Positions 273 to 51,669 of a stretch of DNA of 64,000 nucleotides are shown in pieces. The translations under genes were made by a program, and so were the position numbers. The first letter of the stretch is position 1. Each line of letters starts with the position of its first letter. The notes beneath the pieces are model-generated. The model was not told the origin of the DNA and searched no databases. It saw only the letters and a list, made by a program, of their open reading frames with translations. The DNA comes from a virus. Where the stretch lies: IMG/VR virus record IMGVR_UViG_3300017991_000010, positions 30,029 to 94,028 of that record; one strand, given 5' to 3'.

Positions 273-1889
273 ATGGCTCGAGTGACCTACCGCAGCAGGC
301 GCCGGACGGCCAAACCCAACCCGGGCTTCCTGACCCTGGTCAATCCGGGCAAACCCCCCCGCAAGCGGAAACGAGCCAAGCCCAAGAAGCGAACCACGGG
401 GGCCAGCCGGCGCCCGAGAGCAAACAGCACTGGAGGAACAATGCTGAGAAGGAAAAAGCGGCGCGCAGCCCCGAAGCGTCGGCGCAAGGTCGCCAAGCGC
501 AACCCGATGTCGGCTGCCAAGCGCAAGGCCGCAGCCAAAAAGGCTGCCCGGACCCGCGCTGCCAACAAGCGGAAGCGGTCCCTCGCGGCCAAGAAGGCCG
601 CCCGGACGCGCAAGCGCAAGTCGCGCAAGCGTGCAGCCCCGAAGCGCTCGTACCGGCGCAATGCTTCCAAAAAGCGGAAGCTGACCGCGGCGCAGAAAAA
701 GCGGCGCGCAGCTGCCCTCAAGGGCATCCGGCTCAAGAAGGGCCGCAAGGGCAAAAAGCGCAAGGTCACCAAGGGCGTCAGCCCCCGGCCCAACCGCAGG
801 CGGCGCGTGACCCGTCGGCGTAGGAGCTACATGCGCAACAGGCCCGTCCGTAGGCGGCGCATCAGGCGCAGGGCCAAGCGGAACGTCGGGCTGGAGATGC
901 TCAAGAGCGTGGGCGCTGGCTTCGCCGGCTTCCTGGCGGGTCGACTGACCGCCAACATGCTTGCTCGGGCGACCTTCCTGCCCGCAGCTGTGCAGCCCTA
1001 CGTGCCCCTCGTCGGAACCGTCGGCGCTGTGGCGCTGGCCTACTACCTCCCGAAGAAGGTCAAGGCCCTCAGGGTCAAGCCGGCCACGCACACCGCTCTG
1101 GTGCTCGGCACCGGCATCGCGGCTGCGGACGTGCTCTTCTCGTCCCTGGCCCCCGCCAGCGTGCGTCAGTACGTCGGCGCTCCCCCGCCTGTGGCCATCC
1201 CCGGCCTCTCGGGCGACCTGAGCGTCTACGAGGCCTCGCTGCGCGGCTTCGGCACCCCGCCCGCCTTCCTCGACGAGAGCGGCGACTGGGGCATGCAGCC
1301 CATGTTGCCCGGCCGGAGCTACCCCGTGGGCAAGTCCATGGCCGAGTACGTGCAAGAGCCCCTGGGCGCCACCGTACACGAGGCGATGGCCGAGTACATC
1401 CAGGAGCCCGGCATGGGCGAGTACGTCGTGGACGAGGATGGCGCAGTCCTCTCCGGCCATGACGAGCTGGACGCAGGCGTCGTGAGCGACGGCCTGTTCG
1501 GCGACGACGTGGACATCATGGCTCTCGATGGGGACGAACTCCCTTTTGAGGGTAGCGCAGCTGCCGGCGCCGCCGCGGCTGCAGCGCGTCGCATGGCTCA
1601 GATCGGCGCAGCCAACGGCCGCCCCGAGGCTGAGGTCCACCGTGCCGGCTACGGCGCAGCGTGCCAGGCCATTGGCGCGGGTCAGCTCTCGAGCGCCCTG
1701 CGTGCGATGGTCGAGGCGGAGATCCAGAAGGCCATGGGCCGCGTGCAGGCGTTCACGCCCGTGCAGGACCCGGCCGCTGGCGCCCCGATGGCCGTCGGCC
1801 CGATCCGCGCCCCCCAGCCCGCCAAGTGGACCTACGGGTCCGTGAGCGAGGGCGGAGGCGTCTTCGGGAAGTCGAGCATCGGCGGCTAG
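273..1889 (+). CDS. Basic, multi-TM virion-like protein with K/R-R-N tags
   Basis: 538 residues. Residues 1-205 are extremely rich in Lys and Arg, including two copies of KKAARTR, like histone H1-type or viral core proteins that condense DNA. At least three hydrophobic segments follow (about 210-235, 240-260 and 272-292), then an acidic, Ala-rich C-terminus with a repeated MAEYVQEP/MAEYIQEP element. In the basic half, KRNP (75-78), RRNA (128-131) and KRNV (202-205) look like repeated linker or cleavage sites, and NP also occurs at 16-17 and 24-25. First gene of the structural run, with an AAAGGG-type ribosome site. Inference: a genome-binding protein tethered to an internal virion membrane, possibly processed by protease. 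No named family recognised. Confidence 0.7.
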   Translation: MARVTYRSRRRTAKPNPGFLTLVNPGKPPRKRKRAKPKKRTTGASRRPRANSTGGTMLRRKKRRAAPKRRRKVAKRNPMSAAKRKAAAKKAARTRAANKRKRSLAAKKAARTRKRKSRKRAAPKRSYRRNASKKRKLTAAQKKRRAAALKGIRLKKGRKGKKRKVTKGVSPRPNRRRRVTRRRRSYMRNRPVRRRRIRRRAKRNVGLEMLKSVGAGFAGFLAGRLTANMLARATFLPAAVQPYVPLVGTVGAVALAYYLPKKVKALRVKPATHTALVLGTGIAAADVLFSSLAPASVRQYVGAPPPVAIPGLSGDLSVYEASLRGFGTPPAFLDESGDWGMQPMLPGRSYPVGKSMAEYVQEPLGATVHEAMAEYIQEPGMGEYVVDEDGAVLSGHDELDAGVVSDGLFGDDVDIMALDGDELPFEGSAAAGAAAAAARRMAQIGAANGRPEAEVHRAGYGAACQAIGAGQLSSALRAMVEAEIQKAMGRVQAFTPVQDPAAGAPMAVGPIRAPQPAKWTYGSVSEGGGVFGKSSIGG

Positions 1890-1964: not shown

Positions 1965-2576
1965 ATGCCTAAGATTCGCGGAGCAAGAGAGAAGCGCCAC
2001 CAGCCGTTCTGGGATAGCCTGATTCGCGGCACGGCGGGCAGCTACACGTTCGCATCCGGCGCAAACGCGCTGGGCGCGACCAACAACCTGTTCCAGACCC
2101 AGTCGGGCGGGAACCTGGCGATCACCAACATGGAAGGCAGCGGCGTCTTCCCGTCGGATCAGACCTACCGAATCCTCGCGATGCGCGTGGGACTGCACTT
2201 CCGCGGGATCACCGGCGGCGGCCTGACCGATCACATCATGTACCACCGAGCCGCCTGCCAGCTCTTCTGGGAGCTGTTCGTCGCCCAGAAGTCGGCGTTC
2301 CAGGCGTACACGCCCTACCTGCCCCTCGGCGGCGGGCTCTTCGGTGACGTCGGCAACGACACGACCGTGTACTTCAACAACGGAAACCCGGGCATGGACG
2401 CGACCATGGTTCTCGCCCGCAGCATCGCCCTCCCGGCGAGGCAGAACTTCCGCGTCGTGAACACGATCGTGGCCTGCGGCGCCGCCAACTTCCTCACCGA
2501 CATCGGCAGCGTGACCGGCGGGGAAATCTGGATCTGGTACACGGTGGACGGCTTGCACGTCCGCGACATCCTGTAG
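1965..2576 (+). CDS. Putative capsid protein, jelly-roll-like (paralogue of 39949-40557)
   Basis: 203 residues. ATG 1965 is chosen because AGAGGAGG lies just upstream; an in-frame ATG at 1920 lacks such a site. The sequence is beta-rich with few long helices. It shares P-K/R-I-R/K-G near the N-terminus, TNMEGxGxFPxDQ, ELFVAQ, RQNFRVV and the terminal RDIL with the protein at 39949-40557, so the two are clear paralogues. Size, beta content and position beside membrane proteins fit a single-jelly-roll capsid subunit such as those of P23-77-like membrane viruses, but this is inference; no named capsid family is recognisable by eye. Confidence 0.6.
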   Translation: MPKIRGAREKRHQPFWDSLIRGTAGSYTFASGANALGATNNLFQTQSGGNLAITNMEGSGVFPSDQTYRILAMRVGLHFRGITGGGLTDHIMYHRAACQLFWELFVAQKSAFQAYTPYLPLGGGLFGDVGNDTTVYFNNGNPGMDATMVLARSIALPARQNFRVVNTIVACGAANFLTDIGSVTGGEIWIWYTVDGLHVRDIL

Positions 2577-17356: not shown

Positions 17357-18124
17357 ATGCCTGGTTTGACTTACGGCGTCATCATCCCTACCAGCGGCAA
17401 CCGATACGTCCCCTACCTCCAGAACACCCTGGGCGCGATCCGGCGCCAGCGCTCCGAGGTCGGGATCAAGGTCGTGTGCCTCTACGACGAGCTGGAGGAC
17501 TTCAAGCCGCTGGCCGACGTGTGCTGCGAGCACGACGCCGACCTGATCGTCACCGCGGGCAAGCACCCCGCCTTCTGCGCCCCCCGCGCGCGCAACATCG
17601 GAACGCGCGCGTCAGAGGCCGACGTGCTCCTCCACATCGACAGCGACATCGTGCTCCACCCGTCCACTTTCGATGAGCTGGACGCGCTCTTCACTGCCGA
17701 GCAGGGCATCGCGGTCATCCTGTCCGTGTACCTGATGACGGGCTGCTGGCCCGCCGACCCGATCTTCCAGATCACCGACCCCGCCGCCTTCGACTCGGTG
17801 TGCCGAGGGGGCAAGTTCACCCCTACGGGCTACGGCGCCGTGGCGGTCAAGCGTGCGGACGTTGAGCACATGCGCGGCCATGACGAGCGCTTCTACGGGC
17901 CCTGGGCCGACGACGTGGACTTCGTCCGGCGCCTCGAGCGCATGGGCCGGCGCGTCGTGCGTACGCAGGACGAGTGCAGGATGAGCATGATGCACCAGCA
18001 CCACAGCTACCCCGGCGGCAAGATCCCCAACGCCTCGAACCCCTTCACGGCGCGCAACCGCAAGATCCTTGCCGAGTCGACCGACATCATCCGCAACCCG
18101 GACGGGTGGGGGGACCAGGACTGA
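17357..18124 (+). CDS. Family 2-like GT-A glycosyltransferase
   Basis: 255 residues. YGVIIPTSGNRYVPYLQNTL is the nucleotide-sugar entry of GT2 folds, HIDSDIVL has the DxD metal site, and YGPWADDVDFVRRLE is the acceptor/catalytic region. Ends NPDGWGDQD, almost the same tail as the protein at 9167-10765. Leaderless start from the promoter at 17321. First gene of the second half of the glycan cassette. Confidence 0.75.
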   Translation: MPGLTYGVIIPTSGNRYVPYLQNTLGAIRRQRSEVGIKVVCLYDELEDFKPLADVCCEHDADLIVTAGKHPAFCAPRARNIGTRASEADVLLHIDSDIVLHPSTFDELDALFTAEQGIAVILSVYLMTGCWPADPIFQITDPAAFDSVCRGGKFTPTGYGAVAVKRADVEHMRGHDERFYGPWADDVDFVRRLERMGRRVVRTQDECRMSMMHQHHSYPGGKIPNASNPFTARNRKILAESTDIIRNPDGWGDQD

Positions 18125-18984: not shown

Positions 18985-18986
18985 GA

Positions 18987-19655
18987 ATGAACCGCAAGAC
19001 CCTCGAGTTCGATCGCAGGACGGTCGAGACCAACCAGCGCGAGTGGACCGGCGAAGGCCTCTGGGAGGCGATCTGGAGGGACCTGCTGCCCCCCGGCGCC
19101 GACGGCCATCTCCTCGACATCGGCTGCGCCGTGCATTGCTGGTCCTGCAGCGACTACAAGGTGATCCGCTGCGACCAGTACGCCACGCGCGATCAGGGCG
19201 GCTGGACCCACTTCAAGACGGGCGACATCAACGGCCGCTGGCCCTACGGAGATCAGTCTTGCGAGGGCGTGATCGCTGTCGAGGTGCTCGAGCACATCGA
19301 AAACGTCTGGCACTTCTACCGCGAGGCAGCTCGGGTCGCGCGCCGCTTCGTGCTGGTGACCACGCCCAACGTCGAGTGCCAGATCAGCCGCCGCCTCTTC
19401 GCCAAGACCGGACACTTGTTCAACTTCTCGCCCGAGGAGCGCGAACGCCACCGCCACATCAGCCCGATCTTCGGCTGGCAGATCGAGCACGCGGCCGAGG
19501 CTGCAGGCTGGCGGATCGAACACATCGGCTACGAGAGCCCCGACCTCGCGAAGGAGCCCCTCGTCAAGTCGACCGTCGATGCGCACCCTGAGCTGTCGCA
19601 CCTCGCGCCGGCGGGCATCAACCAGAGGACCCTCGTTGCCCTATGCGTACGCTAG
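18987..19655 (+). CDS. Class I SAM-dependent methyltransferase
   Basis: 222 residues. HLLDIGCAVHCWSC is motif I (SAM binding), VIAVEVLEHIENVWHFYREA matches motifs II/III of small-molecule methyltransferases, and VLVTTPNVECQ fits post-III. Probably methylates a sugar or glycan end. Overlaps the sulfotransferase gene by 13 bases. Confidence 0.75.
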   Translation: MNRKTLEFDRRTVETNQREWTGEGLWEAIWRDLLPPGADGHLLDIGCAVHCWSCSDYKVIRCDQYATRDQGGWTHFKTGDINGRWPYGDQSCEGVIAVEVLEHIENVWHFYREAARVARRFVLVTTPNVECQISRRLFAKTGHLFNFSPEERERHRHISPIFGWQIEHAAEAAGWRIEHIGYESPDLAKEPLVKSTVDAHPELSHLAPAGINQRTLVALCVR

Positions 19656-20485
19656 CGATCATCGGACAGGACCGCTGCGGCAGCACGATCCTGGCGCGCA
19701 TGCTCGACCGAGTCCCGGGCCTAGCGTCCGCGGGCGAAGTCCACTGGCTTGTCGACGCGCCCCCTCACCGCCCCCTAGCAACGCGCATTCGGGGCTGGCA
19801 CATCTCGCGACGCTGTATGCGGCACGGCGCGTCCTGCCCCGTCTTCGATGAGCCTTTCATCACGCAGCGCTTTCCCGAGGGGGACTTGTATGCGATCGTG
19901 GCCAAACGGCTCGGGTGCGACACGCTCGTAAGCGCCGACAAGTCGCCCCAGCACTTCGAGCGCTTTACCGAGCGGGGGCAGCCCTTCGGCGTGATCTTGT
20001 ACAAGCGGCCCCAGCGCGCGATCTACTCGCACATGGTCGGCGAGGCGAAGACCTTCGAGGAGGCGCTCGAGGCCTGGCACCGATTCTACGCGCTCGCGAT
20101 CCGCTGGGCGCCTCAGTGGTGTAAGGAGTACGTCGCGCTCTCCTACGAGGACATCGTGCGGTCGCCGGGCTGGAGCGTCTACGCGATCACGCGCATGCTG
20201 GGCGCGCCCCGCACCGAGATCCCCCTCGCGCTCCCCGACGAGTACCACTTCATCGGCGGCAATCGCAACGCGCACCTCTGGGGGCGCATCAGCGAGGACC
20301 GCCGGTGGGAGAAGAACCTGGCCGCGCATCTGCAGGCCCAGGCAGACAAGGACCCCAGGACCAAGCGGATACTGCGCCACCTCGAGCCCCTGCGACGAGA
20401 GAGTCTGCATGGCTGGCGACGCGCACAGGAGGAAGCTGATGCTACCGGGCGTGACGATCGTGATCCCGATCACGCGACTGACTGA
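19643..20485 (+). CDS. PAPS-dependent sulfotransferase-like protein
   Basis: 280 residues. IIGQDRCGSTILARML is the 5'-phosphosulfate binding loop (GxxRxGST-like) of the sulfotransferase fold; VALSYEDIVRSPGWSVYAI matches the second (3'-phosphate) motif, where SYEDIV is followed by a helix. Expected to transfer sulfate from PAPS to a glycan hydroxyl. Shares the operon with an SQD1-like gene, both pointing to a sulfur-bearing glycan. Confidence 0.75.
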   Translation: MRTLAIIGQDRCGSTILARMLDRVPGLASAGEVHWLVDAPPHRPLATRIRGWHISRRCMRHGASCPVFDEPFITQRFPEGDLYAIVAKRLGCDTLVSADKSPQHFERFTERGQPFGVILYKRPQRAIYSHMVGEAKTFEEALEAWHRFYALAIRWAPQWCKEYVALSYEDIVRSPGWSVYAITRMLGAPRTEIPLALPDEYHFIGGNRNAHLWGRISEDRRWEKNLAAHLQAQADKDPRTKRILRHLEPLRRESLHGWRRAQEEADATGRDDRDPDHATD

Positions 20486-21302
20486 GGACTATGCGACGCG
20501 CCTGGGCTGCTGCCTGCGCTCGATCTCGCGCCAGACGCTAACCCGCGAGCGACGCGACACGATCATCTCGCTCTGCCTGCAGCCCAGGTCGATCGAGGAG
20601 AAGGCAGACGTGCTATCGGCGCTCCTAGGCGAGGCGATCATCCACCAGGCCTCGATCGTCTGCACCAAGCACATGCTCAACACGGACTACCCCACCGCGC
20701 TCGTGCGCAACATCGGGGGCAGGTGGGGCCGGCGCGAGTACCTGACCTTCGCCGACGTAGACGGCGTGCTCCACCCTGAGGCACTCGAGGTTTCGCTGGA
20801 GCGCCTGGACGCAGCCCCCGAGACGTCGCCCCCCGCCGTGACGTGCATCCAGACGGCGATGACCAACTGGCCCCTGGGCTCGGCTAACTACGAGACGAGC
20901 GACCCTGAGGTCTTCGAGCACCGCTGCAACCAGTTCCCTCTAGCCATCGGCACGGGCTGCTGTACCGTGACGACCCAGCGCGTCTTCGAGTACGTCCGCG
21001 GCTTCGACGAGCGCTACACCTGGTATGGCGCGTCCGACGTCGACTTCACCGACCGACTCGTGCGTGGGGGCTACAGAGTCGAGAACCTGACCGAGACCTG
21101 TGGCTTGATGAACATGCACCAGCACCATGACAGAGGCGATCGCGACAAGGGCCACAGGCTCAGCGAGAAGCGCCGGGCCATGCACGACATCCTCGAGTCC
21201 TCGAAGGGCCAGCTCGTCCGCAACGAGGGCGAGCCCTGGGGCGGGATCGATTTGGCCGCGGATGCGCTTGATGGCTGGCCAAATCCAACGGAAGGATCAT
21301 GA
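20439..21302 (+). CDS. Family 2-like glycosyltransferase
   Basis: 287 residues from ATG 20439, which has AGGAGG 6 bases upstream; ATG 20409 lacks one. GVTIVIPITRLTEDYATRLG begins the GT-A fold, TFADVDGVL carries DxD, and YTWYGASDVDFTDRLVRGGY is the acceptor region. The tail RNEGEPWG resembles the NPDGWG ends of two other GTs here. Overlaps the sulfotransferase gene by 47 bases. Confidence 0.7.
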   Translation: MLPGVTIVIPITRLTEDYATRLGCCLRSISRQTLTRERRDTIISLCLQPRSIEEKADVLSALLGEAIIHQASIVCTKHMLNTDYPTALVRNIGGRWGRREYLTFADVDGVLHPEALEVSLERLDAAPETSPPAVTCIQTAMTNWPLGSANYETSDPEVFEHRCNQFPLAIGTGCCTVTTQRVFEYVRGFDERYTWYGASDVDFTDRLVRGGYRVENLTETCGLMNMHQHHDRGDRDKGHRLSEKRRAMHDILESSKGQLVRNEGEPWGGIDLAADALDGWPNPTEGS

Positions 21303-22447
21303 GAGTCTACATCCTAGGCATCGACGGGTACATCGGCTGGGCGCTGGCCCAGTACCTCTCCTACCACGGGCACGACGTCCACGGCATGGACAACGGCGCC
21401 AAGCGACGCTGGGCTGCGGGCCTAGGCGCGCGCTCAGTGCTCAAGACGCCGCTAATGTCAGAGCGATTCGCCGCTCTCGAGAGCGCCACGCAGAACCGCG
21501 GCATGCGTCCCTTCTCCGCGCTGAGCTATCACATCCTGCGCAACGAGCTGGCAGCCTTCGCCCCCGACGCGATCGTCAACCTCGCGCAGCAGCCGAGCGC
21601 GCCCTATTCGATGAAGGGGCCCGAGGAGTGCGCCGAGACCAAGCGCAACAATGAGATCGGCATGACCAACGTGCTGTGGGCGATGCGCGAGGCCTGCCCC
21701 GACGCGCACCTGGTCGCGATCGGAAGCATGGGGGAACTCGGCACCCCTCCCTGCCCGATCCCGGAGCCCCCTTTCTCGCTCAGCGTCCACGGTGTGGACT
21801 GGGAGCCTCAGCACTTCCCGCGCTGTCCCTCGAGCCTGTACCACAGCGCAAAGGTGGCGAGCACCCACGACATCGAGCGCGCCTGCGAGTGGTGGGGCCT
21901 GAGCGCGACGGACATCATGCAGGGCGTGGTCTACGGCGTCGATCACCCGGGCAGGTTCGGGGGGCTCTCGGGCAACCCCTCCATCTGGGCAGACGAGTGC
22001 TTCGGCACCGCGCTCAACCGCTTCTGCGCCCAGGCTGCGATCGGGATGCCGCTCACCGTCTACGGCGCCGGGACGCAGCGGCGCGGCTTCTTGCCCCTGC
22101 GCGACAGCCTGCAGTGCCTGCGGCTCGTCCTCGAGAACCCCGCTGAGGGCTACCGCTGCATCCACCAGTTCGATCGGGCCTACCATGTCCTCGAGCTGGC
22201 CGAGGCGGTCCAGGGCGTAGGCAGGCCGATGGGCCTCAACGTCCGCATCGAGCACCTCGACAACCCCCGCTACGAGGCCGAGGAGCACGTCTACTCGCCC
22301 GAGGTGCGCTGGCTCCCCGAACACGGCTACGACCCCGCGGGGGACCTGCACGGCGAGATCGAAGAGATGCTGCGCGTCATGATCGCCAACCGCGAGCGTA
22401 TCGAGGGGATGCGCGGCGTGCTGGCTCCGACGACGCGCTGGCGCTAG
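21299..22447 (+). CDS. sqdB: UDP-sulfoquinovose synthase-like (SQD1 family) epimerase
   Basis: 382 residues, short-chain dehydrogenase fold. ILGIDGYIGWALAQYL carries the DGYxGW NAD loop of SQD1; ALESATQNRGMRPFSALSYH, NLAQQPSAPYSMKG, AIGSMGELGTP and SSLYHSAKVASTHDI (YxxxK) follow SQD1 in order. SQD1 makes UDP-sulfoquinovose from UDP-glucose and sulfite, for sulfolipids or sulfonated glycans. The gene is last in the glycan operon (ATGA overlap) beside a sulfotransferase. Subfamily assignment is by motif reading, and a related nucleotide-sugar epimerase remains possible. Confidence 0.7.
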   Translation: MRVYILGIDGYIGWALAQYLSYHGHDVHGMDNGAKRRWAAGLGARSVLKTPLMSERFAALESATQNRGMRPFSALSYHILRNELAAFAPDAIVNLAQQPSAPYSMKGPEECAETKRNNEIGMTNVLWAMREACPDAHLVAIGSMGELGTPPCPIPEPPFSLSVHGVDWEPQHFPRCPSSLYHSAKVASTHDIERACEWWGLSATDIMQGVVYGVDHPGRFGGLSGNPSIWADECFGTALNRFCAQAAIGMPLTVYGAGTQRRGFLPLRDSLQCLRLVLENPAEGYRCIHQFDRAYHVLELAEAVQGVGRPMGLNVRIEHLDNPRYEAEEHVYSPEVRWLPEHGYDPAGDLHGEIEEMLRVMIANRERIEGMRGVLAPTTRWR

Positions 22448-22506: not shown

Positions 22507-22785
22507 ATGGGCGAGCGCCGACTAGCCGTCATCATGATCTACGCACGCAAAGGCGAAGTCCAGGAGGTGCGCGGGATCGTTGGGCGTGCGATCCGCTCGT
22601 CGCTGGGCGTGCGCCGGTGGCTCGAGGACGACCACTGGGTGGCGTACCATCGGCGCGAGGGCGATCAGTCCCCACGCTACACGCTCTACGTGACCGACGC
22701 AGAGATGGATCGACTGGTGGGCGAGATCGAGGACCTGGAGGTCGGGCTGGGCTGGCGCCTCCCCATCGAGATCTTCCACGACTGA
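22507..22785 (+). CDS. Small protein, unknown
   Basis: 92 residues, alpha/beta, starting MGERRLAVIMIYARKGEVQE and ending in a helix (EMDRLVGEIEDLE). The gene has its own leaderless promoter with a palindromic operator. It heads a transcription unit with the next three genes. No domain recognised. Confidence 0.6.
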   Translation: MGERRLAVIMIYARKGEVQEVRGIVGRAIRSSLGVRRWLEDDHWVAYHRREGDQSPRYTLYVTDAEMDRLVGEIEDLEVGLGWRLPIEIFHD

Positions 22786-22793
22786 GGTAAGCG

Positions 22794-23438
22794 ATGGCCA
22801 AGTACATCTTTCCGAAGGAGAAGAAGTTCCCCGTCGGGGACAAGGAGCACGAGCGGCGGGCCTACGCCTACGCGCTCGCTGGCCGCATCTCCGAGGACCA
22901 GATCATGCCCGTGTTCCGCTACCTTGCCAAGCACGCCAAGGACGAGGACACGAAGCTCCGGGCCTTGGGCGCGCTGCTCCAGTGGCGCAACTACCAGACC
23001 GGCGACGTCGCCAAGGCCTACGGGGTCGTGCGGCGGAAGGGGGCGCGGCGGAATAGCAGCAAGACCGACTACATGAACTACAAGGCGCGCCTGTGGGACG
23101 GCGTAAGAGCCGCGCAGGAGCTGGATCGCTTCACCTTCATCGTCCTGTTCGTCGCTCGCATGACGCGGCGCAAGGTAGATCGGGACGTGACCGAGGGCTA
23201 CATGGTGCACCGGACTCGCGGCGGCTGGGTCTACGGTTGGGGCACGCGCCCCGACGATTGGCTCAACCGCCCCACCAAGGACGCCTACCGCCTGTACGAT
23301 ATGATCCGTAGGACCCCGCTGAACTTCTACGTGCGACAAGCCGAGGAGTTCAGGATCGATGTTCACGAGAGGCAGCCGTTTGGCACGGCTGACGCGCGGA
23401 AGCGGCGCGCGGTCGAACAGGGAACGGAGGGCTGGTGA
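22794..23438 (+). CDS. Basic protein of unknown function
   Basis: 214 residues, helical and basic, with RRKGARRNSSKTDYMNYK in the middle; RRNS resembles the K/R-R-N tags in the large basic proteins. Contains a hydrophobic helix (FTFIVLFVARM). Ends GTGA-coupled to the hydrolase-like gene. Possible DNA-binding or virion protein. Confidence 0.5.
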   Translation: MAKYIFPKEKKFPVGDKEHERRAYAYALAGRISEDQIMPVFRYLAKHAKDEDTKLRALGALLQWRNYQTGDVAKAYGVVRRKGARRNSSKTDYMNYKARLWDGVRAAQELDRFTFIVLFVARMTRRKVDRDVTEGYMVHRTRGGWVYGWGTRPDDWLNRPTKDAYRLYDMIRRTPLNFYVRQAEEFRIDVHERQPFGTADARKRRAVEQGTEGW

Positions 23439-29142: not shown

Positions 29143-29353
29143 CACTGACCTCCTCCAGCTCGACAGCCGTTGCTTCGCCGCATTCGATGTTGACCATTGG
29201 CGGGCCTCCGAAGTAGGTCATGTGCGCCAGTTCCTCCCCGGCCACCAGCTCCGCATCGGCCCGGCTCCGCGCCCAGACTCTGACCTGCACGGTGACGGTG
29301 CCCCGGAACTTCCTGAAGCCTCGCTTCCGCCACTCCGTCGCACAGATTGCCAT
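29123..29353 (-). CDS. Small protein with acidic tail
   Basis: 76 residues, basic N-terminal beta region (TVTVQVRVWARSRADAELVA) and acidic end EEVSDEDEEH. AAAGGAGG ribosome site. Overlaps the zinc protein by 20 bases. The 145 bases upstream hold no clear gene. Confidence 0.5.
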   Translation of the reverse strand: MAICATEWRKRGFRKFRGTVTVQVRVWARSRADAELVAGEELAHMTYFGGPPMVNIECGEATAVELEEVSDEDEEH

Positions 29354-29498
29354 CTCTAGCCTCCTTTCAAAAGGTGGGCCCCGGGCATCGAGGCGTGAGC
29401 GCCCTGCGCGCTATGAACACACGCCGCTCGACCTCGATTCGTCAGGCACTGCGCGAAGGATGGGCACGCAGCCTGAAGCCCGGGAGCCCTGGGCGCGT

Positions 29499-29780
29499 CT
29501 ACTCGCCGTCCTCCGCGTACTCCATGATCGTGACCACGATGCGCTCTTCCCCGTCCTGCACCCACACGCGCGCTGGACCAAGGACGCAGATCTCCTTTCG
29601 TGAGCCGCGCTGCACGAACTCGTGCCGGGGCAAGCCCGTCGGCCCGTCGAGTTGGCGCTGGATCTTCTCGAGCGCGTCGGCGATGTGGCAGTACACGGGC
29701 GTGACCGGGAGCGTCTCGGCGAGGCGCCTGATCTCCTGGCAGTGCTCGATGACCTTCTGTCCTGTCGGTGTGCGGATCAT
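29499..29780 (-). CDS. Small protein, unknown
   Basis: 93 residues from ATG 29780 (MIRTPTGQKVIEHCQEIRRL), ATGA-coupled to the Ala-rich gene. Helix then a beta hairpin (EICVLGPARVWVQDGEERIV). The long upstream in-frame extension is Gly-rich shadow of the Ala-rich gene and is not used. Confidence 0.5.
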   Translation of the reverse strand: MIRTPTGQKVIEHCQEIRRLAETLPVTPVYCHIADALEKIQRQLDGPTGLPRHEFVQRGSRKEICVLGPARVWVQDGEERIVVTIMEYAEDGE

Positions 29781-30583
29781 TTCGTCCCTCCCGGCCACTC
29801 GGGCAGCTCGCGCCGGGTGTCTCGGGCCTGGAGGCGTAGCTCCGCCGCCGCCGCCGCCGCCCTCGCCGCCGCCCACGCCGCCTCCCTCGCCGCCCACGCT
29901 GCCTCCGCCGCCCACGCCGCCCTCGCCGCCCGCGCCGCTGCCTCCGCCGAGCGGTCCTCGCCGCTGATCCAGCGCTTAGCCCAGCGCCGCCAGTCAGCAG
30001 CCCAAGGCTCACGGACGCCGCAGATCGCGCGCACGCCGCGCTCGATGGCCCGCTCCACGATCCTCTCGATGGCCACTTTGGGGATCGAGATCCCCTCAGC
30101 TCGAAGGGCCCAGATCATCCAATCCCCGCGGGGACAGACTTTCCAAGCGGAGGCCGTCTCGTAGCTCTCCAGCCACTCGACGGCCTTGCGGCAGGGCTTC
30201 CTACCATTGAGGCGAGCAGTTGAGATCCAGTCACTCGGTTTCATCGTCCGCCTCCCGTTCCAGCTCGGCAACTCGCGCCGGATGTCACGGGCCTGGAGGC
30301 CCAGCTCCGCCTCCCTCGCCGCCCTCGACGCCGCCCACGCCGCCCACGCCTCCGCCTCCCACGCCGCCGCCGCCGCCGCCGCCCTCACCGCCCACGCCGC
30401 CCCCGCCGCCCTCGCCTCCGCCCTCGCCTCTGCCGCCGAGCGGTCCTCCCAGCGACGGGCCCACCGCCGCCACTCCGTGGCCCAGAGCTTGCGGACACCG
30501 CGCAGCGATTTCAGGCCTCGAGCTACGATCCGCTCGACTGCTGCGGGGGGCACTTCCAGCCCCTTCCACTCGCTCGGTTTCAT
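29777..30583 (-). CDS. Duplicated Ala/Trp-rich repeat protein ('putative immunity protein'-like)
   Basis: 268 residues in one frame made of two tandem copies. Each has KPS(E/D)W, an IVERG-x-(K/R) helix, GVR, WRRWA(K/R)RW, EDRSAEA, then Ala-rich repeats with Trp/Arg and a QARD-x-RRELP end. Copy 2 also contains RKAVEWLESYETASAWKVCP followed by RGDWMIW, seen in phage proteins annotated as putative immunity proteins. An internal ATG at 30244 with GGAGG lacks an upstream stop, so copy 2 may also be made alone. Function unproven. Confidence 0.6.
   Translation of the reverse strand: MKPSEWKGLEVPPAAVERIVARGLKSLRGVRKLWATEWRRWARRWEDRSAAEARAEARAAGAAWAVRAAAAAAAWEAEAWAAWAASRAAREAELGLQARDIRRELPSWNGRRTMKPSDWISTARLNGRKPCRKAVEWLESYETASAWKVCPRGDWMIWALRAEGISIPKVAIERIVERAIERGVRAICGVREPWAADWRRWAKRWISGEDRSAEAAARAARAAWAAEAAWAAREAAWAAARAAAAAAELRLQARDTRRELPEWPGGTK
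29834..29945. repeat. GCC-rich short tandem repeats coding for Ala/Trp
   Basis: Imperfect repeats of GCCGCCCACGCC/GCCGCCCTCGCC units encode the Ala/Trp/Glu/Arg tract of copy 2; a second similar block at about 30315-30430 encodes that of copy 1. Slippage-prone sequence; copy number may vary between isolates. Confidence 0.55.
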
Positions 30584-34784: not shown

Positions 34785-35516
34785 TTACGCAGTAGGGATC
34801 GGAATGCGCGGTAGCGGCCAGCCCGTGATCCACAGCTCGGCTGCTTTGCCTCGCATGGCATCGCGCCAGGCGTCCCTGAGCCGCTCCTCGCACCAGGCGC
34901 CCTCGCCCCAGACGAGATCGAGTACCGATAGCCCAGGCTGCCCCGCCTGCCCCCAGCCGCTGGGGAACTCCCTCGCCGCGGGGTTGGCGGTGACGTGTCC
35001 TACGGTCGCGTGCGCGCGTACACTACCTCTCCAGCCCAGCGCGTAGAGCGCGTCGCGGAGCCGCGCGGCCACGCCCCGCTCGCCCCCGGGCCCGTAGCTG
35101 CCGGCGTACCAGTCGGGCTCGCCCGGGTTCGCGGCGGTGCGGCAGTTGGCCAGGCCGATCACGCCACGCTGCACGGTCACGTGCGCGAGGCCTCGAGCCA
35201 GGCGCGCGAGGTCGAGGTTGTACTGGGGCAGGATCTCGCGTGGGGTGCCGTGGCCGACGATCACGACCGGGCCGGCGGAGCGGCGGGGTCGGGACTCGAG
35301 GGCGCGGTAGACATCGGCGGCGCTGCCTACGGGCACGCGGTCGCCCTGGAGTACGTTGTGGATGCGGTCGGCAGTCTCGCGCATCTCGGAGACTCCCGTG
35401 TCCGCGCGCGTCTGGTAGAGGACCAGGGGGCGGCCTCTCGCGCGCATGAGCGAGACGATCCAGGCGAGAGCGCCGGCGCCAAGCCCCGCGAGCAGCCATT
35501 TGGGGGGACGTCGCAT
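34785..35516 (-). CDS. Membrane-anchored caspase-like (clan CD-like) protein A
   Basis: 243 residues. N-terminal TM (WLLAGLGAGALAWIVSLM). PVVIVGHGTP gives a His-Gly (H89) and VIGLANCRTA a Cys (C125), each at the end of a beta strand, the dyad layout of caspase, gingipain and CHAT peptidases. A second shared block, RAHATVGHVTAN, aligns with RGHVAAGHTINL of protein B (37522-38250). It may process the adjacent K/R-R-N proteins, or act as a toxin or defence effector. Divergent promoter with the polyprotein gene. Confidence 0.55.
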   Translation of the reverse strand: MRRPPKWLLAGLGAGALAWIVSLMRARGRPLVLYQTRADTGVSEMRETADRIHNVLQGDRVPVGSAADVYRALESRPRRSAGPVVIVGHGTPREILPQYNLDLARLARGLAHVTVQRGVIGLANCRTAANPGEPDWYAGSYGPGGERGVAARLRDALYALGWRGSVRAHATVGHVTANPAAREFPSGWGQAGQPGLSVLDLVWGEGAWCEERLRDAWRDAMRGKAAELWITGWPLPRIPIPTA

Positions 35517-35573: not shown

Positions 35574-37370
35574 ATGAAAGCCACCGCCAAGAAGACCGCC
35601 TCTGGATACTCCGTCTCCATCGTCGACCGCAACGGCAGGAAGCTGACCATCGCGGTCTCGTCCAAGGCCAAGGCCGACAAGATCAAGAAGCTCGTCACCG
35701 TCGACGGCTTCACCGTCGGTCAGATCAAGATGCTCTACGGCAAGCGGCCGAAGGGCAAGGCCAAGCCAAAGCGCTCGACCACGAAGCCGCGCAAGAAGAA
35801 GCCAAGCGCGGCTGCTGTGCGGCGGGGAGCCGAAGCCCCCAAGCGCAAAGCCAAGCGTAACGTTTCGCGAGCGAAGACCAAGGCCAAGGTCACGATCCGC
35901 AAGCTCGCCAAGGGCTACTCGGTCAGTGGCAAGGACCGCCTGGGCAAGGCGATCCCCAAGATCACCGTGACGACCAAGGCGAAGGCCGACAACGCCAAGC
36001 GCCTCGTCGAGCAGAAGGGCATGACCGCCAAGCAAATCAAGATGCTCTTCGGAGCCGCGAAGAGGGCCGTCAAGCGCGTCGTGCGCAAGGCCAAGGCTCC
36101 GCAGCGCAACGCGGGCAAGACGGTCAAGCTGCTCCTTGGGGAGTACGGAGCCTACGTCGACGTCCCCATCAACGCCTGGGTCTACCAAGGTGACCCCAAA
36201 GAGGACAAGTACGGCGACTGGGAGGTCAGAGTCAAGAGCATGCGCGCGAAGGACGTCCCTAAGGGCCAGATGGCCTTCGAGACGAGGCACGAGGCCGAGA
36301 AGGACGTACAGCACTGGCTCAAGTCCAACCCCGGGCGCAAGGCGACTGCGAAGCGGCAGGCGGCGAAGCGCAATGCCCCCGGCATCACGATGGTGCTGGC
36401 AGACTACGGCGGGGACTACACCACCAGCGTGCCGCCCAACAAGTTCCTCTACATGTTCAAGCGCGGCGTGCTCCAGCGCATCAAGGCCAAGGACGTGCCC
36501 AAGTCGAAGCGGCTGACTGGAGACGTGTGGGAGTCCAAGCAGGGCGCGATCCAAGACGCACAGGACTACGCCGCTGGGGGACCTCGCGGACCGCGTAGTA
36601 GGGGCATGGCCGAGTACAACCCCAAGCGCACGCGCCGCAACAAGTGCAAGAACCCCAGCCCCCACGACCGCGTAGCGACGTACAAGATCAAGGGGAAGGT
36701 GGGCATCGACGCCGGCACGTACAACTACATCGTCTACGCCATGACCAACAAGGGGCGGAAGGATCTCGCGTACTACAAGAGCTACCGGTCTGCTAGCGCA
36801 GCCGCCAACTCGATCAACAAGCACGGCAAGTGGACTGGGGGGCGGGACCCAAAGCGCGGCATCTCCGTCATTCAGGTCCGGGGCAAGACGGCGACGGTGC
36901 ACTACACCGGCAGCCGCAAGAACCCCGCGAAGCCCAAGCGCAAGAAGCACTCCAACGCCGCGCTCAAGAAGGCCTTCCTCGCGATGCGCGCGAAGGTCGC
37001 CAAGCGCTGCCCGCAGATCAAGTCCATCGGTTTCGGCATCGATCCCAAGATCCACGACAAGCCCCGGCACTTTGGCCTGTACTACCCGATGACGAAGAGC
37101 CGTGGCGGCCAGGTTGGCCTCGCGCCCGAGATCGCCTACCAGCCCATGAGCGTCGTCCGCGGCATCATCCTCCACGAGCTGGGCCACGCCCTCATCGACC
37201 TCGGTTGCTTCCCCAAGGCCAAGAGTTGCAGCTACGACGCCATCGAGCGTCGGGCCGACGCCGCCGCCAAAGCCGCTTCGGGCATGCAGATCTACTACGG
37301 CAAGGACAACGTACAGCGCGCAGGGCCGGGCGCTAGCGGCAAGAAGCTCCGCCCGAAGGGTCTGCGGTGA
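35574..37370 (+). CDS. Basic multidomain protein with K/R-R-N linkers and HExxH peptidase domain
   Basis: 598 residues, very basic. Two copies of a small domain (residues 10-57 and 113-160; GYSV start, IKMLxG end), two copies of another (183-250 and 270-335; L-x-x-Y-G start, IKAKDVPK/SMRAKDVPK core), a beta domain at 366-445, and a C-terminal domain with VRGIILHELGHALIDLG, a gluzincin HExxH (H534, E535, H538). Between domains sit KRNV (95-97), QRNA (178-180), KRNA (266-268), RRNKCKNP (355-361) and RKNP (449-451). Looks like a polyprotein of DNA-binding or virion modules, matured by cleavage at these linkers (inference). Confidence 0.65.
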   Translation: MKATAKKTASGYSVSIVDRNGRKLTIAVSSKAKADKIKKLVTVDGFTVGQIKMLYGKRPKGKAKPKRSTTKPRKKKPSAAAVRRGAEAPKRKAKRNVSRAKTKAKVTIRKLAKGYSVSGKDRLGKAIPKITVTTKAKADNAKRLVEQKGMTAKQIKMLFGAAKRAVKRVVRKAKAPQRNAGKTVKLLLGEYGAYVDVPINAWVYQGDPKEDKYGDWEVRVKSMRAKDVPKGQMAFETRHEAEKDVQHWLKSNPGRKATAKRQAAKRNAPGITMVLADYGGDYTTSVPPNKFLYMFKRGVLQRIKAKDVPKSKRLTGDVWESKQGAIQDAQDYAAGGPRGPRSRGMAEYNPKRTRRNKCKNPSPHDRVATYKIKGKVGIDAGTYNYIVYAMTNKGRKDLAYYKSYRSASAAANSINKHGKWTGGRDPKRGISVIQVRGKTATVHYTGSRKNPAKPKRKKHSNAALKKAFLAMRAKVAKRCPQIKSIGFGIDPKIHDKPRHFGLYYPMTKSRGGQVGLAPEIAYQPMSVVRGIILHELGHALIDLGCFPKAKSCSYDAIERRADAAAKAASGMQIYYGKDNVQRAGPGASGKKLRPKGLR

Positions 37371-37525
37371 GGCTCCTCGCACGCGCCATCGTCTCCCTGA
37401 TCTTCCTGCTCTTCGTCGCGTTCGTGCTGCCCTTCTACTCGTCCACCGCCGCCGTCGTCACGGGCCTCGTCATGTGCGCCGCGATCCTCGTGCATTGGGC
37501 CTGGACTGAGAGGAGGTACAGATGA
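37367..37525 (+). CDS. Two-TM mini-protein (52 residues)
   Basis: GTG 37367 overlaps the polyprotein stop (GTGA), and its own stop overlaps the next ATG (ATGA). Two hydrophobic helices, IVSLIFLLFVAFVLPF and VVTGLVMCAAILVHWAW, and an RRYR end. Too short for usual ORF cut-offs but firmly set in the operon. Could be a small holin-like or membrane partner of the caspase-like protein. Confidence 0.6.
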   Translation: MRLLARAIVSLIFLLFVAFVLPFYSSTAAVVTGLVMCAAILVHWAWTERRYR

Positions 37526-38250
37526 GAGTCGGCTTCTACTTGGTCAAGGACAGGCCGCGCAGGGTCCGTACCTTCATGCGCGCCGCGCGCTGGTGGCGCC
37601 AGCAGTGCTACGGGGACGAGGTGCGCATGTTCGCCTTCGCCGAGGGGCAGGACGTGCTCGCCGTGCTCGAGGACTTCCCCGACGACAGCCTCGAGCAGGT
37701 GGCCTTCTTCTGCCACGGGATCTCGTATGCGCTCGGCCGCCCCGGCAGGCTCGGCTTCGACGTCAGGCCCAAGCGCTACTCGCCCCCCGAGATCTGCGCG
37801 CACACCGAACTAGCCGAAGTCCTCGCGCGCAAGATGAAGCAAGGCGGGCTCGTCTCCCTCTGCGCGTGCCTGTGCTCTCGCTCGCCCCGCTGGCGCATCC
37901 GACAGCTCTTCGGCCGCATCCTCGACCCGTGGTCCCCGCAGTCCTACAAGGACGGGGGCGACGCCTCTTTCTCCTCGCGCTTGTGTCGGACGATCGACCG
38001 CATCGGCAAGCGCGTCCAGGTGCGCGGGCACGTCGCTGCGGGGCACACGATCAACCTCGCCTTGCTGCGCCAGCACGAGGGCGACGAGGCTGTGGGGCGC
38101 GCCTTGTTCCAGATGGTGCACGGCACCGGGACCAAGCCAACCTTGCGTTTGCGCCGCCAGTGGAATAGGATCGTGCGAGGCCGGCTGGCCGCGCGCTGGC
38201 TCTTGGGCCTGTGTGAGGTGGACGATGTGCGACGAACTCTGCAGCGATAG
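37522..38250 (+). CDS. Caspase-like (clan CD-like) protein B
   Basis: 242 residues, no TM. Paralogue of protein A at 34785-35516: AFFCHGIS provides His-Gly (H65), LVSLCACLCS the Cys (C116 aligns best, C114 and C118 are near), and RGHVAAGHTINL the second shared block. The dyad at the ends of two beta strands is typical of clan CD. Same operon as the tagged basic protein, ATGA-coupled through the 2-TM mini-protein. Maturation protease is the main hypothesis. Confidence 0.55.
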   Translation: MRVGFYLVKDRPRRVRTFMRAARWWRQQCYGDEVRMFAFAEGQDVLAVLEDFPDDSLEQVAFFCHGISYALGRPGRLGFDVRPKRYSPPEICAHTELAEVLARKMKQGGLVSLCACLCSRSPRWRIRQLFGRILDPWSPQSYKDGGDASFSSRLCRTIDRIGKRVQVRGHVAAGHTINLALLRQHEGDEAVGRALFQMVHGTGTKPTLRLRRQWNRIVRGRLAARWLLGLCEVDDVRRTLQR

Positions 38251-39948: not shown

Positions 39949-40557
39949 ATGCCACGGATCAAAGGCCCTCGCGAGACCCGCCAGCTGCTATTCTACGACA
40001 CGCTCCTCCTGGACTACCGGGAGGACCCTTATCTGGAGTCCTACCACTGGGAGTGGGACAAGCAGACGACCTACCCGGGCATGATCTTCGTCAACATGTT
40101 CCAAGCGGCGTCAGGGGGGGACCTACGCGTCACCAACATGGAAGGCCTCGGGTGCTTCCCCTTCGATCAGAGCGCGTCCGTAAACGGGCTTGACCTGCAC
40201 TGCGCCTTCAGCGACCCTACGATGATCCGAGACCTGTTCCTGGGCTGCACATTCGAGCTGTTCGTCGCGCAGATGTCTCAGACCAACCTGCCCTTTGCCG
40301 CCTTTGCCGACCCAGCGCGTTGGGAGTGCTCGGAAGCGGGAGTGCCCGTCACGGCCTACCCCCACGGCATCTCGGCTGGCTATCCATTGCAGACGCGTCC
40401 CATCGACATCCCTCCACGACAGAACTTCCGCGTGGTCACCTATCTGGACCGCGCGTTCGCGGACAAGCTCTGGACCCTCTACGAGCGCAAGGAGCGCGGC
40501 ACCTTCGCCATGATCCGCATCGGGCTTGACTGCCTCCTCACGCGGGACATCCTGTAG
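39949..40557 (+). CDS. Second capsid-like protein (paralogue of 1965-2576)
   Basis: 202 residues with the same landmarks as the protein at 1965: PRIKGPRE start, RVTNMEGLGCFPFDQ, FELFVAQ, PPRQNFRVV and RDIL end. Lies 38 kb away under its own leaderless promoter, which suggests separate timing or amount, such as a vertex or minor form of the shell protein. Jelly-roll fold inferred. Confidence 0.6.
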   Translation: MPRIKGPRETRQLLFYDTLLLDYREDPYLESYHWEWDKQTTYPGMIFVNMFQAASGGDLRVTNMEGLGCFPFDQSASVNGLDLHCAFSDPTMIRDLFLGCTFELFVAQMSQTNLPFAAFADPARWECSEAGVPVTAYPHGISAGYPLQTRPIDIPPRQNFRVVTYLDRAFADKLWTLYERKERGTFAMIRIGLDCLLTRDIL

Positions 40558-48849: not shown

Positions 48850-49115
48850 GAGTCGTCCTCCTTGCGCGAGCGCTCTTCGACCTCGAGAACGGCCTCTCTG
48901 ACCACGCTCTCGTAGCACACGCAGAGCAGGCATTCCTTGACGCGTCGGTAGCCGATCCACTCCCCGCAGCCAGCGAAGGTCCCCTTGCAGTGCTCGGGGT
49001 GCCGAATGCAGCGCTCGCCGCCGCCTGTGCGGTGGTAGATGCACGTGTAACACAGCACGGTCTTGTCGATCCTCGCACGCACCTCGGCCATCTCTTTGGC
49101 GCTAAGCAGCTTCAT
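48846..49115 (-). CDS. Cys-rich protein next to the polymerase
   Basis: 89 residues with eight Cys (VLCYTCIYH, RCIRHPEHCKG, GCGEW, CLLCVC), possibly two zinc sites or an Fe-S site. Overlaps the polymerase end by 14 bases. Might modulate replication; unknown. Confidence 0.5.
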   Translation of the reverse strand: MKLLSAKEMAEVRARIDKTVLCYTCIYHRTGGGERCIRHPEHCKGTFAGCGEWIGYRRVKECLLCVCYESVVREAVLEVEERSRKEDDS

Positions 49116-51669
49116 CTAGATCCCTCCAGTTAGGCCCGACACCCAGGTCAGTGGGTAGGGGCATTCCTTCCAAGTGAGACGCCATCAGCTCTTGCACTCT
49201 ACGCCCCACAGTCCATCCCATATCCTCGGGCACCTCGAGCCCAAGGCTGTCGTAGTTGTAGTGGATCACGCCGGTCGACTCGCCCGCGAATCCCCAGGGG
49301 AACTCCGCGATCACGCGCTCGGTTGCGTCGTTGACATCTGCGGCTCCCAGGCTCTGCACGGGGAAGTTGTTTTGAGCCTCTTTGACCGACTCGTCTCCGC
49401 CGCCGTCGAGGAAGTAGCGCCTGCGGTTGTGCAGGGGCTCCTCTAGGTACCCCTGCTCAGCCCACAGGTCCTGGTTTGCCTTCTGGTACACCTTGATCGC
49501 GTTGCGCTGGCGCCAAAAGCGCTTGTACAACGTCTCTATCTGCCCGATGGTCCGGTCTCGATAAGGACGCTGACCAAACTCGTCTCGGTGGTTGCGGATC
49601 ATACGGAAAGCAGTGTTGAGCGCCGCCCCATACTGCACCGCATATACAAAGGCCTTGGTGAACTTGCGCGCCCCTTTGTTGACCCGCTCGATTGGCATCT
49701 CAAGGAGCTTTGACGCATTGAACGTGTGAACGTCGAACTTGTCCTCCTGGAACACACGGATCAGCTCCCAGTCCTGCGCCAGCCAAGCAATGATACGCAA
49801 CTCGAGCTGCTTCTTGTCACAGAAGACCAAGATGTGGCCTGGGGGCGCCGCCCACATGGAGCGCAGATCGCCCTTGACGTTCATGACGTTGGGGTCAGAG
49901 CACGAGAGGCGGCCCGAGACGACGACGTGGGGGTTCCAGTTGGGCCGGACGCGCCCGTCCTCCATCGGGACGATCGAGCAGTAGCCGCGCAGCTTGCTTG
50001 CCTCGCGGTAGTCGATGATCAGCTGGACGGTCTCCTCGAGCTGGGGCGTCAGGCCCTTGTCAACGAGGTAGAGCAGGTTGTCCTTGCTCACGCTGGGCTC
50101 GCCCGTGTCGGTGTAGCCGCCCTCCTTGCCGGGGACGGGAGCGACGCCGCAGACCTCGAACATGAACGCACCGACCTGCTGCGGGCTGTTGGGGTTGAGC
50201 CCCTCGGCCAGCTTGCGCGCGCCCTTGCTCGCGTCCGAGGGCAACGCCTGGACCGCCATGGCCTGCGCCGCGACGCGCGCCTCGTCCATGCGCTCGGTGA
50301 AGACCTTGTAGTGGCGCTTCATCTCGGGGACGTCGAGCCACATGCCGACCTCGTGCAGCTCGCGACAGAAGCGAGACAGGCGCATGTCGGCCTCGAAGGC
50401 GCGCTTCTGCCCCCAGAGGCGCACGTCCTTGACCATGAGGTCGCCCACGCGCGATGTTCCCGCGCAGTCGAGCATGCAGTATTTGGCGATGTCCTCGTCC
50501 GACGCCCACTTGTCGTGGTCGACGTTCTTGTGCTGTGGGCTGTCGGTGTACTGGGCCATGACGAAGCCCAGGTTGTGGGGCAGCTCGCTCCAGATCACGT
50601 GGTGCGAGATCACGGTGTCGAACTCGCGGCGCAGGACCGGGATGTCGGGGCACTGGTGCCGCATGACGAGCGCGTCGTACTGGACGTTGTGAGCCATGAT
50701 GGCCTGGTCGGGGGCACCAAAGAACTCGCGCAGCAGCGCACGCACTCGCGCCTGGTCCTCGGGCGAGTAGAACGCGCTCATGCCGAAGGGCTTCTTGCGA
50801 TCGACGACGGACTCGAAGTGCACGCAGGTGGCGAGGTCCTTGTCACTGATGCCGATGCAGCGCAGCACGTCCGTTGTGGGGTCGAAGGGGTGGTCGGGGC
50901 TCTTGGGCCGGGTCTCGACGTCGTAGGTGATGGGGCTCCTGAGACGCGCCAGGATGTCGCGCAGCTGGTCCACGGTGGGATTGAACACCATGTCGGGATC
51001 GCGCCACTGGAGCCGGCCTCGCGCCATCCTGACAGCCTTGTCGAGGTCGCCCTCGTAGATGGTCGTCCAGCGCCTGGAGCGCAGAACGAAGGCCGGGTGC
51101 ACCGACGAGAGGAGGTTGTACTCGCGCCCGTCGATCACCTTACGATCAGGGAAGCCCCGCGACGCCATCATGGACTTCTCGGAGCCCTCCTTGCTCTCGA
51201 GTAGGACCTGGCGCGCGGTCGCGCCGAGCAGGAGCAAGTTGTCGTGCCCCTTGATCTCCTCGAAGAGGTGTGCCGAGCAGCAGGCGATGGGCGAGGGAAG
51301 GGGCTCTTCGCCCTTGGCCTTGCGGCGCTTGTTGCGCTTGGACCAGCCCGCCATGAGCTTCTTCAGGTCGTTGCCGGGCGGCCGGCACAACAGCGCGTTG
51401 GTCAGGGAGGTGCGCTCACGCGACGACCCTGCCTTGAGCAGCGCGCGGCTGTGCTCACGGCCCGACGACCCCACGAGGGGCCGGCGTAGCTCCTCCTCGG
51501 TATGGCCCGGGGCCTCGGCTATCACGAGCAGCTCAGCGCCTTGCCTGATCTCCGGCGGCACGTACTTGTTTTGCCTCCGCACTGGATACAGGATGCACTC
51601 GCTGCAGCGACAGCCGTGGTCCTCGGGCACATACCGGCTGGTGTCGTTGATGGTGTTGTACGCCGTCAC
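49102..51669 (-). CDS. polA: Uracil-DNA glycosylase/family A DNA polymerase fusion
   Basis: 855 residues from GTG 51669. Residues 1-200 match family 4 UDG: Cys pair CRCSEC, IAEAPGHTEEE, second Cys pair (IACC), and SSVHPAFVLR. About 230-420 is a 3'-5' exonuclease (ITYDVETRPK, MAHNVQYDAL). The polymerase has motif A (near 616) with D and QLELR, motif B (near 668-681) RKFTKAFVYAVQYG, with Tyr at the position of E. coli Phe762, and motif C (near 805) as YDS in place of HDE, keeping the Asp. Family 4 UDGs were first noted as related to phage SPO1 polymerase. Replicative polymerase. Confidence 0.85.
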   Translation of the reverse strand: MTAYNTINDTSRYVPEDHGCRCSECILYPVRRQNKYVPPEIRQGAELLVIAEAPGHTEEELRRPLVGSSGREHSRALLKAGSSRERTSLTNALLCRPPGNDLKKLMAGWSKRNKRRKAKGEEPLPSPIACCSAHLFEEIKGHDNLLLLGATARQVLLESKEGSEKSMMASRGFPDRKVIDGREYNLLSSVHPAFVLRSRRWTTIYEGDLDKAVRMARGRLQWRDPDMVFNPTVDQLRDILARLRSPITYDVETRPKSPDHPFDPTTDVLRCIGISDKDLATCVHFESVVDRKKPFGMSAFYSPEDQARVRALLREFFGAPDQAIMAHNVQYDALVMRHQCPDIPVLRREFDTVISHHVIWSELPHNLGFVMAQYTDSPQHKNVDHDKWASDEDIAKYCMLDCAGTSRVGDLMVKDVRLWGQKRAFEADMRLSRFCRELHEVGMWLDVPEMKRHYKVFTERMDEARVAAQAMAVQALPSDASKGARKLAEGLNPNSPQQVGAFMFEVCGVAPVPGKEGGYTDTGEPSVSKDNLLYLVDKGLTPQLEETVQLIIDYREASKLRGYCSIVPMEDGRVRPNWNPHVVVSGRLSCSDPNVMNVKGDLRSMWAAPPGHILVFCDKKQLELRIIAWLAQDWELIRVFQEDKFDVHTFNASKLLEMPIERVNKGARKFTKAFVYAVQYGAALNTAFRMIRNHRDEFGQRPYRDRTIGQIETLYKRFWRQRNAIKVYQKANQDLWAEQGYLEEPLHNRRRYFLDGGGDESVKEAQNNFPVQSLGAADVNDATERVIAEFPWGFAGESTGVIHYNYDSLGLEVPEDMGWTVGRRVQELMASHLEGMPLPTDLGVGPNWRDLDEAA

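What the first reader, a model, noticed from the sequence alone, without database searches (positions are those of the whole stretch)
35574..37370. Basic polyprotein-like protein with repeated K/R-R-N linkers
Five to six short linkers, KRNV, QRNA, KRNA, RRN/KNP and RKNP, lie exactly between duplicated domains. The same tags (KRNP, RRNA, KRNV) occur in the basic virion-like protein at 273-1889, with weaker cases at 22794 and 44368. This spacing is what a processing site would give. It also ends in an HExxH peptidase domain. Cleavage is inferred, not seen.
Basis: partly seen in the sequence, partly recalled or inferred. Interest (0 to 1): 0.8.

Follow-up and report, generated by a model that had tools for sequence, protein, structure and literature searches.

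The report
Asn-tagged modular proteins of tailless phages
In an uncultured bacterial virus, a basic protein is built like beads on a string with a short asparagine tag (K/R-R-N-P/A/V) between every bead; a second virus group uses the same kind of tag exactly where beads are gained, lost or swapped, which suggests a shared, untested way to cut up or anchor virion proteins.

Summary
The 598-aa protein at 35574-37370 has six small segments (two of them duplicated) joined by five basic linkers. Each linker carries a [KR]N[PAV] tag and no segment does (within-linker shuffle P = 5e-5). Tags also crowd the basic protein at 273-1889 (P = 0.01); elsewhere in the record they are at chance, so the 'weaker cases' at 22794 and 44368 carry no weight.

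No close homologue of the protein exists in the collections. A tag-pattern scan did find an independent group of about 17-kb circular viruses with three neighbouring Asn-Pro-tagged proteins. There NP is invariant while flanks and linker lengths drift, and modules are gained, lost or swapped at tags. Both viruses, and the cultured tailless membrane phage SSIP-1, encode a homologous transglutaminase-like cysteine protein beside the structural genes; in SSIP-1 it is annotated as structural. No terminase was found here.

Cleavage at the Asn remains the best single explanation (about 0.4); a non-cleaved docking or turn motif is a serious rival. The tag system looks undescribed, and SSIP-1 virions may allow a direct test.

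The parts
35574..37370 (+). Modular basic tagged protein, 598 aa
   Evidence: ORF with plausible ribosome site; internal duplications; no family or homologue found
35583..35747 (+). Segment 1 (residues 4-58)
   Evidence: 55% identical to segment 1'
35853..35864 (+). Tag KRNV, linker between 1 and 1'
35883..36053 (+). Segment 1' (residues 104-160)
36102..36113 (+). Tag QRNA, linker between 1' and 2
36114..36329 (+). Segment 2 (residues 181-252)
   Evidence: 30% identical to segment 2'
36321..36332 (+). Extra NP site KSNP at the end of segment 2
   Evidence: resembles KSNPGKK in L043
36366..36377 (+). Tag KRNA, linker between 2 and 2'
36381..36578 (+). Segment 2' (residues 270-335)
36633..36656 (+). 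Double tag RRNKCKNP, linker between 2' and 3 (YNP at 36615-36623 in the same linker)
36666..36911 (+). Segment 3 (residues 365-446)
   Evidence: sequence reading; no homologue found
36915..36926 (+). Tag RKNP, linker between 3 and 4
36936..37367 (+). Segment 4 with HELGH (37173-37187) followed by ERRAD: zincin-like motif
   Evidence: motif only; no family or PDB match
34785..35516 (-). Caspase-like motif gene, H89-G90 and C125, N-terminal membrane segment
   Evidence: paralogue of 37522-38250 (27% identity, E 9e-10); fold not confirmed
37522..38250 (+). Second caspase-like motif gene
273..1889 (+). Tagged basic protein (KPNP 312-323, LVNP 336-347, KRNP 495-506, RRNA 654-665, KRNV 876-887) followed by a hydrophobic region; positional counterpart of protein (iii) in L043/L044
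   Evidence: no sequence-level homology shown
1965..2576 (+). Candidate capsid protein, next to the tagged basic protein
   Evidence: best hit in this record for the L043-group capsid-like family, but only E 0.06; model too weak
39949..40557 (+). Paralogue of 1965-2576 near the main tagged gene
   Evidence: 30% identity, E 5e-16

Best explanation
The gene encodes a chain of small basic modules, made with or for the particle of a virus whose structural region resembles that of tailless membrane phages, joined by Asn-centred junction tags ([KR]xN followed by P, A or V). The tags are junction signals: the chain is most likely cut at or beside the Asn during particle maturation, releasing small modules, as in other viral precursor proteins. 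The cut would be made by the conserved transglutaminase-like cysteine enzyme encoded with the structural genes, or by self-cleavage of the Asn. Shown: the tags, their placement, their conservation in a second virus group, and the shared enzyme candidate. Inferred: virion location of this protein, cleavage itself, and the enzyme.
For: All five linkers are tagged and no segment is (P = 5e-5). Tags are concentrated in the structural-type gene regions (8 against 0.9 expected) and at chance elsewhere (2 against 1.3), although the excess is carried almost entirely by the two tagged proteins. In the L043/L044/L046/L047/L051 viruses NP makes up 54, 30 and 47% of Asn contexts in three adjacent proteins against 6-8% in the capsid-like protein and in the rest of this record. 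NP columns are aligned and invariant while flanks and linker lengths drift, and modules are inserted (L046), lost (L047, L051) or swapped (C-terminus) at NP. Modules of that protein match PHROG families of small separate phage proteins, and one is a separate 49-aa gene in MW202825. A transglutaminase-like protein with the GDCDD motif (ADCDG in SSIP-1) sits beside the structural genes in this record (L003:2556-3017), in the L043 group and in SSIP-1, where gp34 is annotated as structural. Precedents: LapG, a transglutaminase-like cysteine protease (PMC3032545); autocleavage at an Asn-Pro bond in aquareovirus VP5 (PMC9148132) and at NPTH in FlhB (PMC3708937); repeated prohead-protease sites in one propeptide (PMC10052503).
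Against: No cleavage data exist. Pro after the cut is disfavoured by most proteases (own knowledge). LapG cuts between alanines (PMC3032545), and many transglutaminase-fold proteins are not proteases. In the (iii) proteins the tags lie only about 12-15 residues apart in an Arg-rich arm, which fits a binding arm equally well. The two virus types do not share homologous tagged proteins at sequence level.
Confidence: 0.4

Rival explanations
1. The tags are uncut short linear motifs: Asn-Pro turns in a basic linker that bind DNA, membrane or a capsid pocket, so each module is anchored in the particle.
For: NP is invariant with K/R favoured two residues before it, and the residue directly before it is variable; tags also lie near N-termini (MAEMLLINP, invariant in seven viruses) and are repeated 3-5 times in an Arg-rich arm before a hydrophobic domain. 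Asn-Pro is a known turn former (own knowledge).
Against: About one tag per junction is more than anchoring needs; in the window record Pro is often replaced by Ala or Val, which loses the Asn-Pro turn but keeps Asn.
Confidence: 0.33
2. The tags are plain flexible linkers, seams left where small genes fused and where recombination swaps modules, without a function of their own.
For: Modules are stand-alone genes elsewhere and swaps fall at tags. The C-terminal repeat NPATGSKKS...NPATGSKKS in L044 looks like a local duplication.
Against: NP is kept while adjoining linker residues and lengths drift, and tags with the same core occur in a separate virus type.
Confidence: 0.17
3. The caspase-like pair beside the gene is the dedicated tag protease.
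For: Two paralogues directly flank the gene with conserved H-G and C; predicted strand-HG and strand-C order is as expected for that fold, at low confidence. Ala or Val after Asn would suit an Asn-specific enzyme (own knowledge).
Against: No homologue detected in the second tagged group (weak test); no caspase or CHAT family match; no significant fold match; NP tags would be poor substrates.
Confidence: 0.08
4. Chance: a K/R-rich protein produces such strings by composition.
For: The single cases elsewhere in the record are at chance.
Against: Composition-preserving shuffles inside the linkers give P = 5e-5, and a second virus group shows the same placement.
Confidence: 0.02

Closest known systems
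[quoted passage not shown]
   Same: Transglutaminase-like protein homologous to those of this record and of the L043 group (E 2.4e-7 and 1.6e-24), annotated as structural in SSIP-1; similar order of coiled-coil gene, transglutaminase-like gene, small membrane proteins, then a protein with NP sites before a hydrophobic region and tandem proteins of about 200 aa
   Different: 43.8-kb halophile phage; its NP sites are ENP type (4, all in structural proteins, a pattern noticed after the fact); no sequence-level match of capsid or tagged proteins
FLiP-group (Finnlakeviridae-like) viruses, PMC5894146
   Same: Up to 17-kb genomes with a rolling-circle Rep, like L044
   Different: The L043-group capsid-like protein has no sequence match to solved structures; membership not shown
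Prohead-protease propeptides of giant phages (SPN3US, PMC10052503)
   Same: Repeated short cleavage motifs in one head protein
   Different: Different motif and a tailed phage; there cleavage is shown by mass spectrometry
Asn-Pro self-cleaving proteins (aquareovirus VP5, PMC9148132; FlhB, PMC3708937)
   Same: Scissile Asn-Pro bond
   Different: Single site in the protein, not repeated linker tags
LapG / Peptidase_C93 (BTLCP), PMC3032545
   Same: Transglutaminase-like Cys-His-Asp enzyme; the window-record protein gives a weak LapG hit (E 2e-4)
   Different: LapG is a protease cutting Ala-Ala in an adhesin; the phage proteins fall below the C93 cut-off

Membership tests
Viral polyprotein processed at repeated sites | Recurrent motif at module junctions | tested here: met
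Viral polyprotein processed at repeated sites | Motif conserved while flanks drift in relatives | tested here: met
   met in the independent L043 group; no relatives of the window protein itself were found
Viral polyprotein processed at repeated sites | Cleavage products in particles | not testable with these tools
   needs mass spectrometry
Caspase/legumain-like (clan CD) peptidase, flanking genes | His-Gly and Cys dyad after core strands | tested here: inconclusive
   dyad conserved between the two paralogues; strand order fits but mean pLDDT is 44
Caspase/legumain-like (clan CD) peptidase, flanking genes | Match to a clan CD family profile or fold | tested here: not met
   PF00656 and PF12770 silent; Foldseek nothing significant
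Transglutaminase-like superfamily (L003:2556-3017) | Transglut_core above cut-off with Cys-His-Asp | tested here: met
   26.9 bits against 23; aligned C, H and D
SSIP-1-like tailless membrane virus | Capsid proteins homologous to SSIP-1 | tested here: inconclusive
   no sequence match; structure model too weak
SSIP-1-like tailless membrane virus | Shared virion transglutaminase-like protein | tested here: met
   E 2.4e-7 against SSIP-1 gp34
Tailed phage (Caudoviricetes) | Large terminase | tested here: not met
   no phrog_2 match, but the record may be a fragment
Zincin metallopeptidase (segment 4) | HExxH plus third ligand and a family match | tested here: inconclusive
   HELGH and ERRAD present by eye; no family match

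The most novel reading that the evidence does not exclude
Tailless membrane-type phages share a maturation system in which modular virion proteins are assembled from swappable small domains separated by Asn(-Pro) tags and cut during particle maturation by a virion transglutaminase-like enzyme or by Asn self-cleavage.
Probability: 0.25. Interest if true: 0.85.

Novelty: new variant of a known kind. Interest (0 to 1): 0.6.

Why it matters
[quoted passage not shown] A tag that marks module junctions in two unrelated-looking viruses, with a shared enzyme candidate that is annotated as structural in a cultured phage, would give a concrete and testable maturation or docking mechanism. It would also show how such viruses shuffle small basic domains.

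Tried and rejected
Direct homologue searches of the main protein, of 273-1889 and of the caspase-like genes in annotated phages and IMG/VR (one of the caspase pair in IMG/VR), and of the main protein also in bacterial genomes, found nothing; the search with segment 1/1' also failed. Most hits of the RNP-repeat pattern were frame-shifted or low-complexity reads; only L033 was convincing. The bacterial genome hit G129/L055 looks like a TatC-type membrane protein, hit by composition. AlphaFold models of 1965-2576 and of the caspase-like protein were too weak to use. Segments 1-3 are not demonstrably related to the L043-group modules. Rctr197k shares the polymerase type but is filed as a tailed phage, and no tag-rich frame was found in its first 50 kb. 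Relatedness of 273-1889 and (iii) to SSIP-1 gp44 is positional only.

Full report
Setting. The window is bases 30029-94028 of a 94,028-base virus record. It encodes a family A DNA polymerase fused to a uracil-DNA glycosylase-like domain, an integrase, glycosyltransferases and M23/endolysin genes, and the part of the record before the window encodes a SNF2-type helicase. No large terminase was found, and the structural-looking region at record 20-37 kb is rich in small membrane proteins. The record may be incomplete.

Observation. The 598-aa protein has two internal duplications and ends in a segment with HELGH. Five basic linkers separate six segments; every linker contains a [KR]N[PAV] tag and no segment does. 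Shuffling residues inside the linkers, which keeps their strong K/R content, reproduces this with P = 5e-5. The segment limits are mine, set with the tags in view except for the two duplications. The tags are also enriched in the basic N-terminal part of 273-1889 (P = 0.01). In the rest of the proteome they are at chance, so the single cases at 22794 and 44368 should be dropped. Two further cases in the structural region, RRNV just before the catalytic GDCDD of the transglutaminase-like protein and RRNA at record 29331-29870, are not significant together (P = 0.08).

Relatives. No homologue of the protein was found in annotated phages, IMG/VR or one genome per bacterial species. A DNA pattern for repeated RNP, scanned over IMG/VR, led to L033, part of a record whose ends overlap, so probably circular and about 17.7 kb, with a rolling-circle Rep. 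Its tagged protein and capsid-like gene then brought in further members. They carry three adjacent tagged proteins: (i) a multi-module protein, (ii) a DUF6321-like protein and (iii) a basic protein with a hydrophobic domain, followed by the capsid-like gene.

What that group shows. In (iii) and in most of (i) the NP columns are aligned and invariant while neighbouring residues and linker lengths change; in (ii) the linker is eight residues longer in L043 but keeps NP. L046 has an extra module between two NP tags, L047 and L051 lack modules, and the C-terminal modules differ, all at tags. Several modules match PHROG families of small separate proteins, one of which is a 49-aa gene in another phage. 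K or R is favoured two residues before Asn; the residue directly before Asn is variable. In the window record Pro may be replaced by Ala or Val. The common core is therefore a basic residue plus Asn, with Pro strongly preferred in one group.

Which virus is this. The gene order of coiled-coil protein, transglutaminase-like protein, small membrane proteins, tagged basic protein and then capsid-like proteins is similar in the window record and in L043/L044. The transglutaminase-like proteins are homologous (E 4.8e-11; Pfam Transglut_core above cut-off). The capsid candidates match only weakly (E 0.06, best of all proteins in the record). The same enzyme family was found in few annotated phages, foremost the tailless membrane phage SSIP-1, whose gp34 is annotated as structural. 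SSIP-1 also has four [RH]ENP sites, all in structural proteins, but that pattern was noticed after the fact. Membership of the window virus in an SSIP-1-like group is a good lead, not a demonstrated fact.

Enzyme candidates. The two genes flanking the tagged protein are paralogues with a conserved H-G and Cys, consistent with a caspase-like motif, but family profiles and a low-confidence fold gave no support, and they were not detected in the second tagged group (a weak two-sequence model). The transglutaminase-like protein is the candidate shared by all lineages examined; LapG shows that this fold can be a protease (PMC3032545). Self-cleavage at Asn-Pro has precedents in aquareovirus VP5 (PMC9148132) and FlhB (PMC3708937).

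Mechanism. I favour maturation cleavage at the Asn tags at about 0.4, mainly because a two-residue core recurs once per junction and outlives its flanks. A non-cleaved anchoring or turn motif is close behind (0.33), and plain seams are possible (0.17). No sequence evidence available here separates the first two; the SSIP-1 virion test would.

Limits. The two virus types do not share homologous tagged proteins at sequence level, so their tags may be convergent. Functional statements are inference; no experiment was run. That the tag system is undescribed rests on two narrow paper searches and on the lack of family matches, not on a full literature review.

Noticed in passing
L044 15905-16132 (minus strand): A group I intron (Rfam RF00028, E 4.9e-19) interrupts the capsid-like gene of the 17.7-kb virus; L043, L045 and L046 have the gene uninterrupted.
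   Followed up: partly
L003:2556-3017 (record 22556-23017): The transglutaminase-like protein has a tag-like RRNV in a short insertion directly before its catalytic GDCDD, absent in the L043 group; perhaps a self-processing site or chance.
   Followed up: partly
window 49102-51669 (-): Family A DNA polymerase fused at its N-terminus to a uracil-DNA glycosylase-like domain.
   Followed up: no
window 1965-2576 and 39949-40557: Two diverged copies of the candidate capsid protein about 38 kb apart, the second close to the main tagged gene.
   Followed up: partly
window 12429-14069 and 14080-15672: Tandem pair of pectin-lyase/tail-spike-like proteins, 42% identical.
   Followed up: no
window 9143-22447: A run of glycosyltransferase, sulfotransferase-like and sugar-epimerase-like genes.
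   Followed up: no
virus record (gene not located; one of the 95 proteins of alignment A1): One protein matches Tad3 (type I Thoeris inhibitor, Pfam E 7.9e-39), suggesting an anti-defence gene.
   Followed up: no
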